DNA from: an uncultured Clostridia bacterium
Lineage (GTDB): Bacteria; Bacillota; Clostridia; Oscillospirales; Ruminococcaceae
Direction: 5' to 3'
Assembly (NCBI GenBank): GCA_946617595.1
Contig: CAMOKN010000020.1
Location: 1-34,657 of the forward strand
Length of the DNA: 34,657 bases
Each line of letters begins with the position of its first letter. Positions within the stretch are counted from its first letter, which is position 1. A program made the translations under genes and the position numbers. Below the pieces are notes generated by a model. It was not told the origin of the DNA, did no database searches, and saw only the letters and a program-made list of their open reading frames with translations. Shown piece after piece: positions 1 to 8,397 of the stretch.

Positions 1-1317
1 AAGTGGTTCTCCGATCAGGGTATAAGGGTTTGGAGTACACAAGAGGGCGAACAGCGTTTTGAGAGTCATGTGGACAAGCTGATGAACTATATTAGGTTCT
101 GGCAGGCGTCCGGCGAAAGTGCAAAGACGTCTATAAGAATCAAGACCCGTATGCAGCAGCTTTCCGCCGAAGGAATATATACCGGCGGTTCGGTACCTTT
201 CGGGTATTGTACCGTTAATAATGGGCGGCTCAATAAGAAGGGCAGGGTAGTTCTTGACCTTGCGATTGAGCCTACGGAAGCAGAGTGGGTGCGTAAACTC
301 TATGAGAAAACCGTAACCGACGGCACTGGTTCTTATAAGCTGGCTATGTTCCTCAATGATAATGGGGTAAGGACTCACACCGGCGCGAAGTTCCAGTCGG
401 AATCCGTTATCCGTGTACTTCGTAATAAGATGAACGTTGGGTATGCAAGGAATACCGATGCGGATGTGCCGCACCTTACACACTTACAGATAGTGGATCA
501 GCATACTTTTGACAGGGTTCAGGAGATTCTTGACCAGAGATCAAGGGCTTTTGATGATAAAAGGACGATAGCCCGCCAAACCAAGAGTAAGAATCTGCTG
601 TCCGGGATCATGTTCTGTGCTCACTGTGGGGGTAGGCTGACATCTATCGTATATCGTGAGAAGTACATAAGGAAGAAGGACGGCTCGGTCTATGACCGGT
701 CGCAGCTCAAATACCTTTGCTATCATAAGAGCAGGGGGCTTTGTAAGTGCGATGGGCAGAGTACCTATGTTGCTGAAAGAGTGGACAAGACTGTCTGCGA
801 GGTCATTCATCAGATGTTTGAGAGCATTAAGGGGGCTCCAAGCGAGGAGATCCTGCAGAAACGTCTGAAAAAGGAAATGGCAAGCAATAAAGCGAAGCAG
901 ACAAAGATAAATCTGGAGTTGAAGAAGAACACCAATCAGCTTGAAAGGTTACAGGAGGAGATTGCGGCTACCCTGACCGGGGACAGCATCTATTCGGCTG
1001 AACAGCTTAGTAGTGCTATAAAGACCGTAGAGAGCCGTATTTCAACTATGAACTTACAGCTTGAGCAGCTTCAGAAAGAAGCAAAGGACAAGAAAGCGTC
1101 CATAGAACAGATACGCCCGATGTTCGATCAGTTCGTAAGCTGGGCGCAGGAGTTCGATAACAGCACCCTTGAACAGAAGAAGATGATAATCTCGCAGCTC
1201 GTTACCCGCATAGAGCTTAACAAAGACTATGAGCTTAACATCGAGCTGAACATGGACTACAAGGACTTCTGCAATGATTGGGACACCCTCAACACCAAGA
1301 GTACGGTGGTGGCTTGA
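1..1317 (+). CDS. Large serine recombinase, C-terminal part (truncated by the left window edge)
   Basis: Frame is open from base 1 (KWFSDQGIRVWSTQEGEQRFESHVDKLMNYIRFWQASGESAKTS...). Contains recombinase domain motif IYTGGSVPFGY, zinc ribbon CAHCGG...C..KC and a C-terminal coiled coil. Confidence 0.93.
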   Translation, partial: KWFSDQGIRVWSTQEGEQRFESHVDKLMNYIRFWQASGESAKTSIRIKTRMQQLSAEGIYTGGSVPFGYCTVNNGRLNKKGRVVLDLAIEPTEAEWVRKLYEKTVTDGTGSYKLAMFLNDNGVRTHTGAKFQSESVIRVLRNKMNVGYARNTDADVPHLTHLQIVDQHTFDRVQEILDQRSRAFDDKRTIARQTKSKNLLSGIMFCAHCGGRLTSIVYREKYIRKKDGSVYDRSQLKYLCYHKSRGLCKCDGQSTYVAERVDKTVCEVIHQMFESIKGAPSEEILQKRLKKEMASNKAKQTKINLELKKNTNQLERLQEEIAATLTGDSIYSAEQLSSAIKTVESRISTMNLQLEQLQKEAKDKKASIEQIRPMFDQFVSWAQEFDNSTLEQKKMIISQLVTRIELNKDYELNIELNMDYKDFCNDWDTLNTKSTVVA

Positions 1318-1692: not shown

Positions 1693-1768
1693 TCCCGCTT
1701 AGCTCAGTCGGTAGAGCGCTTGACTGTTAATCAAGATGTCACTGGTTCAAGTCCAGTAGCGGGAGCCA
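1693..1768 (+). tRNA. tRNA-Asn (anticodon GTT), CCA encoded
   Basis: TCCCGCTTAGCTCAGTCGGTAGAGCGCTTGACTGTTAATCAAGATGTCACTGGTTCAAGTCCAGTAGCGGGAGCCA. Acceptor TCCCGCT/AGCGGGA, T-loop TTCAAGT, anticodon loop CTGTTAA. Confidence 0.97.
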
Positions 1769-1933: not shown

Positions 1934-1987
1934 AAAGAGGTTCGAGTCCTGAGAGGGTAACTTCAGTGGACTTGAACCTCTTTTTTT
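1934..1987 (+). terminator. Long terminator-like hairpin
   Basis: AAAGAGGTTCGAGTCC...GGACTTGAACCTCTTTTTTT: near-perfect 16-bp stem plus T7. Confidence 0.6.
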
Positions 1988-2099: not shown

Positions 2100-2306
2100 G
2101 TTATTAAGGTGGGTGCTCCCCGGGGGCAAAAAATTTTGAAAAAAAGATGTGTACGAGGATCAATAGATTTTCTTTTCGTGTTCGCTCAATCATACTATTT
2201 GCGAAAGACTTAAATCAGAGCTTCCGGCACCTGAAAAATTTTTAAGAGGTCGGCGCGGAAGAATGGTGGGTCTTGGAGATTAAGCAAGCGACATCTTCTT
2301 GAACCA
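2100..2306 (-). ncRNA. Candidate structured non-coding RNA, divergent from the TnpB-like gene
   Basis: No long ORF. Canonical minus-strand promoter at 2312-2340 points into it. Nested hairpin CTTCCG..ACCT..AGGT..CGGAAG and hairpin TTCGC..GCGAA within. Confidence 0.35.
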
Positions 2307-2311
2307 ATCTG

Positions 2312-2340
2312 ATTATACCAGATCGTCAAGGATTTGTCAA
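2312..2340 (-). promoter_or_regulatory. Sigma70/A-type promoter TTGACA-17-TATAAT
   Basis: Reverse complement TTGACAAATCCTTGACGATCTGGTATAAT; consensus -35 (2335-2340) and -10 (2312-2317) with exactly 17 bp spacing. Confidence 0.7.
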
Positions 2341-2359
2341 GAGATTTAAGGAGGCAAAT

Positions 2360-3025
2360 ATGTTAACTTTACAGAACAACAAGTGGGCAAAGTCCGGCAA
2401 CGAAGCGGACAGACACGAAGGCAAGGTCATCGGGATCGATATGGGTGGCAAAGCATCGAACTTTGCTGTATGCGTCAGCTCATACGGTGAGATCGACAGG
2501 TTCGGCGGTGCGGAGCTTGAGGAGATCTGCCATAACGCGTTGACCGATGAGAGCGTTAAAAGGGGTTTGGACATCTATTTCCTGCATCACGCCGAGAAAA
2601 TGGTATTAAAGTGGAATGCTGCCGGCGTTACGAATATTTTTGTTGGATGCTGCGGCGGTGACTATCTTAAAGTAGTACACGACAACGAGAACAATGAGCT
2701 TTTTAAGGCAGGAGCTCACAGAAGGTTTATATCGTCTCTTCGTGATGTGTGCAAGGAAGTAGGTATAAGGATCGATGCGAAGTTTAATGAATATTATACA
2801 AGTCAGGCTTGCTCGCTTACGAACGATTACATACCTGCTAATAAGGCAGAAGCAGAGGTTTATTCCTTTGGCGGAAATAGGGTCGGGGGACTGTACATCA
2901 CAAAGACGCGCCTTATGCTGGATGCTGATGTAAACGCAGCGGCTAACATCGTAAGACTCGGCGGATATGACGTAGTTATTCCTATTGGCTGCGACTTTCG
3001 CAATGAGATCAGATCTATGGTTTGA
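2360..3025 (+). CDS. Small TnpB/IS1341-like RuvC-domain protein (no N-terminal domain; RuvC-II and zinc finger degenerate)
   Basis: RuvC-I KVIGIDMGGKASNFAV; EYYTSQACS (cf. TSQxCSxCG); RuvC-III GGLYITKTRLMLDADVNAAANIVR. Strong SD AAGGAGG before the ATG. Confidence 0.72.
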   Translation: MLTLQNNKWAKSGNEADRHEGKVIGIDMGGKASNFAVCVSSYGEIDRFGGAELEEICHNALTDESVKRGLDIYFLHHAEKMVLKWNAAGVTNIFVGCCGGDYLKVVHDNENNELFKAGAHRRFISSLRDVCKEVGIRIDAKFNEYYTSQACSLTNDYIPANKAEAEVYSFGGNRVGGLYITKTRLMLDADVNAAANIVRLGGYDVVIPIGCDFRNEIRSMV

Positions 3026-3039
3026 AAGGGGACGGCAAT

Positions 3040-3303
3040 ATGAAAATCACAAACAACAACGGATACATAGGGAACAACACGAAGGTCAGCAAGTCCGCCT
3101 ACAGCGAACTTGAGAGAAAGTACAGAGCGATGCTCGCCCTTGTGGACGAGTTCATCAAGCGGTTTCCTGAGGCGAAGGAGCTTTATGACGAGCTTTCGGA
3201 GCTTCACTCGGATATCGGGGAGCTGGCGGCAACGATACAGTTCCTCAACGGCTACCATGAAGGGGCGAAGTTCGCTTTGAGCATGGTCGGAGAAGAAGGA
3301 TAA
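3040..3303 (+). CDS. Small DUF6809-like protein
   Basis: YSELERKYRAMLALVDEFIKRFPEAKELYDELSEL...GYHEGAKFALSMV, paralogous to 5731-6006. Confidence 0.6.
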   Translation: MKITNNNGYIGNNTKVSKSAYSELERKYRAMLALVDEFIKRFPEAKELYDELSELHSDIGELAATIQFLNGYHEGAKFALSMVGEEG

Positions 3304-3316
3304 GGGGGTGGTTAAT

Positions 3317-3454
3317 ATGTGCAACTGGAAAATGAAGCTTACGGTACTCCGTATCCTCGCGGATAATAAGGAGCTCCGGGAGCTTTGGAGCAAGGAAAGC
3401 GCCGGTACGGACAAGCAGCTTCAGCTGCTTCCTCCGGCAAAGAAAACAGCATAA
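3317..3454 (+). CDS. 45-aa small protein MCNWKMKLTVLRILADNKELRELWSKESAGTDKQLQLLPPAKKTA
   Basis: ATG preceded by GGGGGTGG; fits between neighbouring genes; not in the supplied ORF track because of length. Confidence 0.45.
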   Translation: MCNWKMKLTVLRILADNKELRELWSKESAGTDKQLQLLPPAKKTA

Positions 3455-3471
3455 TTAAAGGAGTTGATTGT

Positions 3472-3825
3472 ATGAGTAAGGTTACAAGATTTTACGGGAT
3501 TGTAGATAATGTCGGCGTAGGCACACTTAAGCACGGAGCTGAGGACTACCCGGAGGTGCCGATACTGGACGGTGTGACCCTCGATGCTCGGCATCGGGCG
3601 CAGAGTGAGTTCTTTTTCGAGACAGGAGCCGATAGCGTTCGTTTCATCGGAACGGCAACACATGTGGGAGTAGAGGTTACATACAGCTTCTACCCACATT
3701 TCAGCAGGGCGCAGCTGATGACGTTTTATCGGCTGCTCGGCAAAGAGGTGCTCACGGTGGAGACCGAGTGCGAGGACGGGATATATACTATCTCTTATGG
3801 ATATGATAGGGGGAATGTGTTATGA
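3472..3825 (+). CDS. Unknown small protein, member of the tandem paralogous set
   Basis: MSKVTRFYGIV...; start at 3472 after AAAGGAG; ATGA overlap with the next gene. Shared fold pattern (see finding). Confidence 0.65.
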   Translation: MSKVTRFYGIVDNVGVGTLKHGAEDYPEVPILDGVTLDARHRAQSEFFFETGADSVRFIGTATHVGVEVTYSFYPHFSRAQLMTFYRLLGKEVLTVETECEDGIYTISYGYDRGNVL

Positions 3826-4097
3826 AAGCGTCGAAAAAGACGGCTCGGGAGGTACAGGCTGATTATCTGCGTTTCCTCGGCGCAAGCAATGTCGAGTTCA
3901 TCGAGTCGGATGACGAGGTTATCGTTATTGCCACTTTCGAGAAACAGTTCGCTCTTCAGCCCTATGACCTTGATGCGCTGGAGCAGCTTGTAGGTATTCG
4001 TCCCGACATCGGGTTTGACAATTCTGGGACGGATAAGGAAACGGTGGATATGGTGTACTCATATCCGGCAGCCAATGAAAGGGGGAATGTAATATGA
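3822..4097 (+). CDS. Unknown small protein, tandem paralogous set
   Basis: ATGA overlaps at both ends; ...YDLDALEQLVGI...VDMVYSYP. Confidence 0.65.
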   Translation: MKASKKTAREVQADYLRFLGASNVEFIESDDEVIVIATFEKQFALQPYDLDALEQLVGIRPDIGFDNSGTDKETVDMVYSYPAANERGNVI

Positions 4098-4378
4098 GGG
4101 TATCCGGAATAATCAGCGAACAGGTCAAGCTTTTGCTGGGGCTGGGTGCGTCGGAGGTCAGACTGCTGAATACCGACAAGGATGATGATAAGATCGGTGT
4201 TGCGGCTGAGTTCACGACGCGGTTCACATTCAGCAAAAGCGACTACGAGGCGCTGAAAGAAATGGTAGGATTACATTCGGTGTTCGCTTTCGTGAACACC
4301 GAATATACGGGCAACGCGGTAGATATGATATATACCTATTCGCTGGAGAAACAGGAGGAACATCATGAAGAAAAATGA
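4094..4378 (+). CDS. Unknown small protein, tandem paralogous set
   Basis: ...SDYEALKEMVGL...VDMIYTYSL; overlaps neighbours. Confidence 0.65.
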   Translation: MRVSGIISEQVKLLLGLGASEVRLLNTDKDDDKIGVAAEFTTRFTFSKSDYEALKEMVGLHSVFAFVNTEYTGNAVDMIYTYSLEKQEEHHEEK

Positions 4379-4715
4379 TTTGATTTACGCGGAAACAAGT
4401 GAGTATCTGGAAGGCGTGGGTGCTGCGCCGGAAGTCGTTTCTGACTACCGTGAGGTGCGTAAGGAAAAGTGGCAGGACGCTATGACCATAATCGGTACGA
4501 TCACCGCAACCTGCAACAACGCATTCTACGGTGCGACGATCACCCCGAGGAATCAGGCTGATGCCACCGTAAGGTGCAGGGTGGGTCATGTTGCGGCGAT
4601 AGACCTTGACGCGATTTTTGAACTCACCACTAAGCTTACGGTTACGCCCATTGACAGCACATTCGTGATAGAAGCCGTTGTTGAAGATTTCTACAGCGAC
4701 TATTGCAACAGTTAA
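4365..4715 (+). CDS. Unknown small protein, tandem paralogous set
   Basis: ...IDLDAIFELTTKL...FVIEAVVEDFY; SD GGAGG upstream. Confidence 0.65.
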   Translation: MKKNDLIYAETSEYLEGVGAAPEVVSDYREVRKEKWQDAMTIIGTITATCNNAFYGATITPRNQADATVRCRVGHVAAIDLDAIFELTTKLTVTPIDSTFVIEAVVEDFYSDYCNS

Positions 4716-4731
4716 AACAGGAGGTATCAAT

Positions 4732-5106
4732 ATGAAAAAGGAAAAATTATATGACGGAATGACAGAGGCTGAGGCATATTCGAAGACTATGGACGGAATG
4801 TATGAACCCGCAGTTCGTGATGAAAGCGATGAATGCGTTTATCACAGTACTGACCGCTGCATTTGGGAGAGCGTGAAGGCTCTCCTCGACAAGTTTGTGC
4901 TTGGCGACCCGGACAACTTTCTTGGGGAAGTGGTTAGACCTGTGGGTGATCACGACGCTGCTGTTGTGATAAGGCTCGCTCAGCTTGATCCCGATGATTT
5001 TGCTGAGATCGTTAAGCTTTCGGGGGATTACGTTATAACTCCGGGCGATGGATATTTCGAGGTAACAGTGAAAATCAAGGATTTCTACCTCGAAGCGGAG
5101 TTTTAA
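4732..5106 (+). CDS. Unknown small protein, tandem paralogous set
   Basis: Start MKKEKLYDG after AGGAGG; ...LDPDDFAEIVKLSG...YFEVTVKIKDFY. Confidence 0.65.
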   Translation: MKKEKLYDGMTEAEAYSKTMDGMYEPAVRDESDECVYHSTDRCIWESVKALLDKFVLGDPDNFLGEVVRPVGDHDAAVVIRLAQLDPDDFAEIVKLSGDYVITPGDGYFEVTVKIKDFYLEAEF

Positions 5107-6948: not shown

Positions 6949-6978
6949 CGTCGGTTTAATCGGAAGGAAGTGACTAAA

Positions 6979-8397
6979 ATGGCGAAAAATAAAAACAGCA
7001 TTAGAAGTAAGCTGTATTCATTTCAGCTCCTTTGTTTGGAGTTCGTTCTCAGGGTTCTTGCCGTGGGTTGCGGAGCCGCTCTTTTGCTTGATATGGGGCT
7101 CGGTAAAACAATTATTTCCCTTGCGGTCATCAGTGAATTGTTTAAGAAGTCGCAGATCCGTAAGGTGCTCATTGTATGTCCGAACACTTTGCTCAAATTG
7201 TGGGAGCGCGAAACGGAGAAGTTTGCGGATTTTCCCTATAAGTTTGTCATTGTACACGGAAGCAAGGAAAAAAAGAACAGATTGCTGCGGGAAGCGGCAG
7301 AATATGATGACCCGAATGTTTTGATGATCATGGCAATAAGCTACGACAGTATGCGAAATTATGTCACAGAGCTGATCAAATATGCCCCCGACATGATCAT
7401 CGCAGACGAGGGGCACAAAATGAAAGACAAAAGGACTATGCAAAGTCAATGTATGCATATGCTTGGCGACGCTGCAAGATATAAGCTGCTACTTACCGGC
7501 ACGCCAATATGCAATGACGAAAGGGACATCTGGAGTCAGTATAGGTTCCTTGATAGCTCCGTTTTTGGTGACTATTTTTCGTTCTGGCGCAGATATTTTT
7601 TTAAATCCGGAACGTATGAAATATGTTTTAAATCAGAAATGAAGGAGGATCTCAGGGAAAATATTTTTAGCATCGGAATTCGTCTGGAAAAAAAGGAATG
7701 TCTCGATTTACCGGGAATAACTTATACGGAAATTCCAGTTGTATTAGAACCGTCGGCAATGAAGGAATACAAACGCTTGTGGTATGATAGAATGCTGAAG
7801 TTTACTAACGATTCTATAGTTTCTCCCAAAAATATCTTAACTGAACTGCTTCGGCTTTCTCAGTTCACGGGCGGTTTTGTGACCGATGAAAACGGTCGTT
7901 CGGTATCCGTCAGCAAAGCAAAACTGAACGCATTGAGCGAGTTGCTTGATTCTATCCACGAAGAAAAACATAAAGTGGTTGTAATAGCGCGTTTTGTTCC
8001 CGAACTAATTGCTATAGAGAAGCTTTTGGAGAAAAAAGGCGTTGATTACGCTCGCTATCGAGGGGAAATATCAAATGCTGAAAGAATCAAAGGTTTGAAT
8101 AAATTTGATGATGATCCCGAATGCAAGGTTCTGGTCGCACAGCTTCAGACCGTAGGTCTCGGATTGAATCTTACTGTTGCGAGCAAGATAATATTCTACT
8201 CGCTTAGCTACTCTGCCGCAGATTATAACCAGTGTAGAGACAGGATATATCGTATAGGGCAGACGGAAACGTGTCAGTGCTTTCATCTTGTGGCTCAAGA
8301 TACCATAGATGAGGATATTCTTTATGCAATCGCGAACAAGGAATCGCTGGCTCACCACATTATCGACAAATATGGATTGAAAGTTAAATCTGCCTAA
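6979..8397 (+). CDS. SNF2/SWI2-family DEAD-like helicase (stand-alone)
   Basis: Walker A LDMGLGKT, motif II DEGH, motif III LLTGTP, motif V/VI VGLGLNLTVAS..QCRDRIYRIGQ. Confidence 0.92.
   Translation: MAKNKNSIRSKLYSFQLLCLEFVLRVLAVGCGAALLLDMGLGKTIISLAVISELFKKSQIRKVLIVCPNTLLKLWERETEKFADFPYKFVIVHGSKEKKNRLLREAAEYDDPNVLMIMAISYDSMRNYVTELIKYAPDMIIADEGHKMKDKRTMQSQCMHMLGDAARYKLLLTGTPICNDERDIWSQYRFLDSSVFGDYFSFWRRYFFKSGTYEICFKSEMKEDLRENIFSIGIRLEKKECLDLPGITYTEIPVVLEPSAMKEYKRLWYDRMLKFTNDSIVSPKNILTELLRLSQFTGGFVTDENGRSVSVSKAKLNALSELLDSIHEEKHKVVVIARFVPELIAIEKLLEKKGVDYARYRGEISNAERIKGLNKFDDDPECKVLVAQLQTVGLGLNLTVASKIIFYSLSYSAADYNQCRDRIYRIGQTETCQCFHLVAQDTIDEDILYAIANKESLAHHIIDKYGLKVKSA

What the first reader, a model, noticed from the sequence alone, without database searches (positions are those of the whole stretch)
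2360..3025. Stand-alone mini-RuvC derived from TnpB, probably domesticated and nuclease-impaired
221 aa with its own strong SD and start, holding RuvC-I (GIDMG) and RuvC-III (DADVNAAANI) but lacking the N-terminal RNA-binding/REC part of TnpB. The RuvC-II Glu appears lost (NIFVGCCGGDY where IxxExL is expected), and only one Cys of the zinc finger remains (TSQACS). It heads an accessory gene run rather than sitting next to TnpA or transposon ends. This pattern is compatible with exaptation, in the spirit of TnpB-derived repressors (TldR), but far smaller.
Basis: partly seen in the sequence, partly recalled or inferred. Interest (0 to 1): 0.72.

Follow-up and report, generated by a model that had tools for sequence, protein, structure and literature searches.

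The report
Stand-alone RuvC half of TnpB
A small gene in a gut-type bacterium's mobile DNA encodes only the cutting half of an RNA-guided transposon nuclease (TnpB), and comparison with a sister copy shows it is a maintained, working-looking gene rather than a decayed fragment; what it does is not yet known.

Summary
The gene is real. Window 2360-3025 encodes 221 aa: the RuvC plus TNB half of TnpB with its own start and Shine-Dalgarno, and no WED/REC/HTH half. TnpB homology is significant (Pfam Cas12f1-like_TNB, E 2e-8; best solved folds Cas12f, TnpB and Fanzor2). It is not decay: a same-genus genome (G043) has an intact homologue (225 aa, 38% identity) at the same locus. Around it DNA is about 90% identical, but inside the ORF synonymous sites are saturated, so two anciently diverged mini-RuvC alleles have been exchanged almost exactly at the ORF edges.

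Its TnpB relatives are the known 'E-alt' clade, where the catalytic Glu sits just before the YTS motif; E144 is there, with D27 and D190. Losing the IxxE Glu and the zinc finger is a clade trait. The G043 copy does carry Asp to Asn at the third position. The real changes are loss of the guide-RNA half, a ~25-residue internal deletion and loss of basic charge. This is the reverse of TldR, which keeps the guide and loses the nuclease.

A divergent, conserved ~160-nt predicted ncRNA with a perfect promoter abuts the gene; its role is open. Only three members were found.

The parts
2360..3025 (+). mini-RuvC: stand-alone RuvC + TNB protein, 221 aa; D27 (RuvC-I), G96 (at the canonical Glu site), E144 (alternative Glu), D190 (RuvC-III)
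2346..2356 (+). Shine-Dalgarno region (TTAAGGAGGCA) before the ATG at 2360
   Evidence: sequence
2312..2340 (-). perfect TTGACA-17-TATAAT promoter with TG before the -10, reading away from the mini-RuvC gene; also perfect in G043
   Evidence: 0.02 such sites expected in the window
2140..2305 (-). predicted ~160-nt ncRNA: closing helix AAGAAGAUGU/ACAUCUUUUUUU ending in a U-run; 149/166 identical to G043 with one 20-nt block (window 2166-2185) of 8/20 identity
   Evidence: transcription not shown
3040..3303 (+). DUF6809-like small protein directly downstream, 97% nucleotide identity with its G043 copy
   Evidence: (Pfam, below cut-off)
3472..5106 (+). run of five small acidic ORFs (117, 91, 94, 116, 124 aa; pI 4.3-5.1), at least partly paralogous, no known family
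1693..1768 (+). tRNA-Asn (GTT), intact here; its 5' part is replaced in G043 next to the recombinase
70..1317 (+). large serine recombinase, 5' part lost off the contig start

Best explanation
The gene encodes a guide-independent RuvC-fold protein derived from the C-terminal half of a 'D-Phi-G / E-alt' TnpB. Shown by sequence: it kept the RuvC core, the three acidic site residues (D27, E144, D190) and the TNB subdomain; it lost the N-terminal WED/REC half, a basic segment between RuvC-I and RuvC-II, and the net positive charge; it is maintained as a protein. Inferred: without the guide-binding half it no longer performs TnpB-style RNA-guided targeting. It works as a small accessory protein of a mobile element, transcribed with small acidic proteins, and reaches its substrate through a nucleic-acid structure or a protein partner. 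In this allele the metal site is probably still able to cut; in the G043 allele (third Asp to Asn) cutting is doubtful, so binding may be the shared function. A counter-defence or element-maintenance role is the most likely use, but that step is inference only.
For: Pfam TNB above its gathering score (34.6 vs 26.3 bits). Predicted RuvC/RNase H fold (pTM 0.76) with Cas12f, ISFba1 TnpB and Fanzor2 among the best solved matches and RuvC resolvase further down. E144 and D190 invariant across 11 E-alt TnpBs; Gly at the canonical Glu site in every row that covers it. An intact homologue of the same short architecture, including a similar 22-aa N-terminus, at the same locus in G043; codon positions 1/2/3 are 51/63/29% identical and dS is saturated, while the gene just downstream has dS 0.06: long-term purifying selection plus allele exchange. 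Net charge about -5 and -1 for the two complete RuvC parts versus +7 to +27 for the TnpB rows. No other PF07282 gene in the host assembly. Homologues of several distal ORFs of the run lie in G043 on a contig that also holds a MobL-type relaxase ORF and a serine recombinase.
Against: Only two complete members and one partial (G004, at a contig end and joined to a sigma-factor gene) were found although over 1,000 genomes of the class were searched, so conservation rests on few sequences. The N-terminal 18 residues and the loop at 100-112 are poorly modelled. The adjacent ncRNA leaves room for an RNA-dependent role. No direct evidence of activity, substrate or partner. The host assembly is 87.7% complete, so a partner could be missing. 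The counter-defence role has no positive evidence beyond location, small acidic neighbours and allele exchange.
Confidence: 0.5

Rival explanations
1. Non-catalytic decoy or binder: the RuvC shell is used to occupy or inhibit another RuvC nuclease (TnpB or Cas12-type) or to bind a DNA structure, without cutting.
For: D to N at the third catalytic position in the G043 allele; acidic surface; run of small acidic neighbours; allele exchange at an otherwise near-identical locus.
Against: The window copy and the G004 fragment keep Asp at that site, and all three sequences keep E144; no target system identified.
Confidence: 0.25
2. RNA-partnered system: the mini-RuvC uses the divergent ~160-nt ncRNA next to it, with the 20-nt variable block as its specificity segment.
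For: Perfect conserved promoter, conserved RNA with one sharply bounded variable block (17 differences, 12 of them inside 20 nt; none of 20,000 random placements did so); among the 71 genus genomes searched the region occurs only in the two with a complete mini-RuvC.
Against: Only two sequences; the variable block is internal, not 3'-terminal as in omega/reRNAs; the WED/REC half and basic surface are gone; no perfect target of the window block elsewhere in the three assemblies, only hits with 2-3 mismatches, and none in IMG/VR; fold z-scores are modest (-1.4 and -2.6).
Confidence: 0.1
3. Neutral relic of a TnpB that happens to remain open.
For: Lacks half of TnpB; rare; the G004 copy is joined to another gene at its 3' end.
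Against: Two anciently diverged copies of the same short form, both open, with third positions randomised but second positions 63% identical; shared GCCxxDYL motif not seen in the TnpB relatives.
Confidence: 0.08
4. Split TnpB: the N-terminal half is encoded elsewhere and the two reassemble.
For: The RuvC half is complete.
Against: None of the neighbouring small ORFs tested matches a TnpB, WED or HTH family; the basic face and internal segment are also lost. An N-terminal half elsewhere in the genome was not searched for directly.
Confidence: 0.04

Closest known systems
E-alt TnpB, D-Phi-G clade (PMC10711439)
   Same: RuvC-I D-Phi-G, Glu six residues before the first zinc-finger Cys position, RuvC-III xADxNAA, TNB subdomain; 24-35% identity in alignment A3
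   Different: The complete ones seen here are about 400-500 aa with the N-terminal half and strongly basic; this is 221 aa, acidic, with a shortened RuvC-I to RuvC-II stretch (~70 vs 91-100 residues) and a GCCxxDYL motif
TldR (TnpB-like nuclease-dead repressor; PMC13418256)
   Same: TnpB-derived protein associated with non-transposon genes
   Different: TldR keeps guide RNA and DNA binding and loses the nuclease; here the guide half is lost and the RuvC residues are kept
Cas12f
   Same: Best solved-structure match (8j3r, 7c7l, 8dzj); same RuvC + TNB fold
   Different: Cas12f has WED/REC and the canonical RuvC-II Glu (the latter aligned)
Fanzor
   Same: E-alt site; Fanzor2 (9b0l) among fold matches
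   Different: Fanzor has D-P-G at RuvC-I and a full-length guide-binding architecture
RuvC Holliday junction resolvase
   Same: Stand-alone RuvC fold of similar size (7w8d, TMt 0.49)
   Different: No TNB insert; sequence evidence places this protein with TnpB

Membership tests
Cas12f1-like TNB domain (PF07282) | score above the Pfam gathering cut-off | tested here: met
   34.6 vs 26.3 bits, residues 120-197
RNA-guided TnpB (NCBIfam NF040570) | full-length match above the curated cut-off | tested here: not met
   25.3 vs 100 bits, only profile positions 309-388 of 389
RNA-guided TnpB | N-terminal WED/REC guide-binding half | tested here: not met
   RuvC-I begins at residue 25; alignments A2 and A3
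RNA-guided TnpB | omega/reRNA at the 3' end of the gene | tested here: inconclusive
   the next gene starts 14 bp after the stop, leaving no non-coding 3' space, and no Rfam match lies there; a guide RNA overlapping coding sequence cannot be excluded by sequence alone
E-alt TnpB clade | Glu six residues before the first zinc-finger Cys position, with Asp at RuvC-I and RuvC-III | tested here: met
   D27, E144 with C151, D190 (rule from PMC10711439)
Fanzor / pro-Fanzor | D-P-G at RuvC-I | tested here: not met
   D-M-G
TldR | inactivated RuvC triad | tested here: not met
   triad complete in the window copy at E-alt positions
TldR | guide RNA binding retained | not testable with these tools
   needs RIP-seq; absence of the guide-binding half argues against
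IS200/IS605 or IS607 cargo | adjacent TnpA or transposon ends | tested here: inconclusive
   no tnpA recognised among the ORFs around 2360-3025; transposon ends were not searched for systematically; the nearest recombinase is a large serine recombinase about 1 kb away

The most novel reading that the evidence does not exclude
A two-part system: a guide-half-less TnpB RuvC that works with a separate, divergently transcribed ncRNA carrying an internal 20-nt variable specificity segment, protein and RNA segment being exchanged as alleles between mobile elements.
Probability: 0.07. Interest if true: 0.9.

Novelty: new variant of a known kind. Interest (0 to 1): 0.5.

Why it matters
TnpB exaptation is known in the direction of losing the nuclease and keeping the guide (TldR). 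A maintained protein that kept the nuclease core and dropped the guide half would show the opposite route and could be one of the smallest TnpB-derived RuvC proteins. It also warns against calling TnpB-family proteins 'dead' from the missing IxxE Glu alone, since a whole clade carries the Glu elsewhere.

Tried and rejected
Recent decay: rejected by the G043 comparison. Loss of catalytic Glu: rejected for this copy. Known RNA family upstream: none above its threshold except the tRNA. Close phage, plasmid, IMG/VR and GTDB relatives of the short form: none found; the hits whose ORFs I inspected were TnpBs with the upstream half present or cut off by a contig end, or too cut off to tell (plasmid hits were judged by coverage and annotation only, the two class-level hits by open-frame length only). 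G004 as a mobile unit with an end at its stop codon: the junction with the sigma gene lies inside the ORF end, so it is read as a rearranged or truncated copy. phmmer of the protein against PDB sequences gave nothing; a profile search gave repeats of a designed protein plus weak Cas12-2/Cas12X matches, which align Asp with the third catalytic position. The fold model of the neighbouring small acidic family was too poor to use (pTM 0.46).

Full report
What is there. Window 2360-3025 is an ATG ORF of 221 aa with AAGGAGG before it. Residues 120-197 match the Cas12f1-like TNB domain at E 2.2e-8, above Pfam's cut-off; NCBIfam TnpB and PHROG transposase profiles match only through their C-terminal end. 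The protein begins 24 residues before the RuvC-I motif, so the WED/REC half of TnpB is absent.

The active site. In an alignment with 11 TnpBs fetched from GTDB genomes the canonical RuvC-II Glu position is Gly in this protein and in every relative that covers it, while E144, just before YTS, and D190 of the xADxNAA motif are invariant (its printed 'D1' column is one residue before the RuvC-I Asp, which is D27). This is the alternative-Glu ('E-alt') arrangement described by PMC10711439 as a group separate from E-can TnpBs; the paper's rule (Glu six residues before the first zinc-finger Cys) is met by E144 and C151. Most of these relatives have no zinc finger, so its absence here is probably ancestral. 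Hence the window copy has a complete D27/E144/D190 set. The AlphaFold model (pTM 0.76, mean pLDDT 74) puts D27 in the first strand, E144 just after the 137-142 strand and D190 at the start of the 189-200 helix; no coordinates were available to measure distances. Foldseek's best solved matches are Cas12f, then ISFba1 TnpB and mimivirus Fanzor2, with bacterial RuvC further down.

What changed relative to TnpB. Besides the missing N-terminal half, the stretch from RuvC-I to RuvC-II is about 25 residues shorter, removing the basic segment present in the relatives, and the RuvC part has net charge about -5 where the TnpB rows have +7 to +27. The three mini-RuvC sequences share GCCxxDYL at the RuvC-II strand end, which the TnpBs lack.

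Not decay. Two of 198 other relatives have a match. G043 has a 225-aa homologue, 38% identical over the whole length, at the same locus: upstream 1706-2341 is 89% and downstream 3027-3545 91% identical in DNA, and no DNA match remains between them. Within the ORF codon positions 1, 2 and 3 are 51, 63 and 29% identical and dS is saturated, while the gene directly downstream has dS 0.06. So two anciently diverged short-form alleles occupy one locus, exchanged almost exactly at the ORF edges, both kept open under selection on protein sequence. The G043 allele has DANVN in place of DADVN, a change of the third catalytic Asp to Asn, so catalysis may not be needed in every allele; a sequencing error in that assembly cannot be excluded. 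The third copy (G004) is cut by a contig end and joined to a sigma-factor gene at its 3' end and carries little weight. Searches of about 400 genomes each of the family, order and class gave otherwise only TnpB-type hits (ORFs inspected).

Setting. Upstream lie a large serine recombinase and tRNA-Asn; in G043 the 5' part of that tRNA is replaced next to the recombinase, which suggests that the recombinase element uses this tRNA (inference). Downstream is a run of small acidic ORFs, DUF6809 proteins and an SNF2 helicase. In G043 homologues of several distal ORFs lie at the end of another contig, which also holds a relaxase-like ORF and a second serine recombinase; that this contig continues the mini-RuvC contig is likely but not shown. 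The host assembly has no other PF07282 gene.

The divergent RNA. On the minus strand, a 12/12 promoter with extended -10 begins where the homology to G043 ends (2340-2312; 0.02 such sites expected in the window, 3 found) and is perfect in G043 too. It would transcribe about 160 nt leftward, with a closing helix and U-run predicted in both sequences and no Rfam family. The two RNAs are 115/120 identical, then 8/20, then 26/26. No perfect target of the window's variable block was found; of the G043 block, four IMG/VR contigs hold an exact 19-mer, which I did not follow and which may be chance for such an AT-rich word. This is a lead, not a finding.

Verdict. A new, rare, stand-alone variant of a known kind: an E-alt TnpB RuvC that dropped its guide half. 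By its anatomy it cannot work like TnpB in guide binding, and it is not a TldR. Function is inferred only.

Noticed in passing
window 2140-2340 (-): Perfect conserved promoter and predicted ~160-nt ncRNA with a sharply bounded 20-nt variable block, divergent from the mini-RuvC gene; no Rfam family.
   Followed up: partly
window 3472-5106: Five small acidic ORFs, at least partly a tandem paralogous family (91/94 aa pair E 2e-11; 116/124 aa pair E 2e-8), without any supported Pfam, PHROG or PADLOC match.
   Followed up: partly
L004 16730-16800 (G043): Large serine recombinase next to a tRNA-Asn whose 5' part is replaced; suggests tRNA-Asn as its attachment site.
   Followed up: no
window 1934-1987: Strong inverted repeat AAAGAGGTTCGAGTCC...GGACTTGAACCTCTTT (fold z -4.5) containing a tRNA T-arm-like GGTTCGAGTCC, between tRNA-Asn and the ncRNA.
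   Followed up: no
window 6970-8397: Phage-type SNF2 helicase (phrog_62, E 7e-113) at the end of the accessory run; only the helicase part of ZorD/DpdE-like defence proteins matches.
   Followed up: no
L005 13212-13288 (G004): mini-RuvC fragment joined to a sigma-factor gene that is uninterrupted in G022; either a rearrangement or an assembly join.
   Followed up: partly
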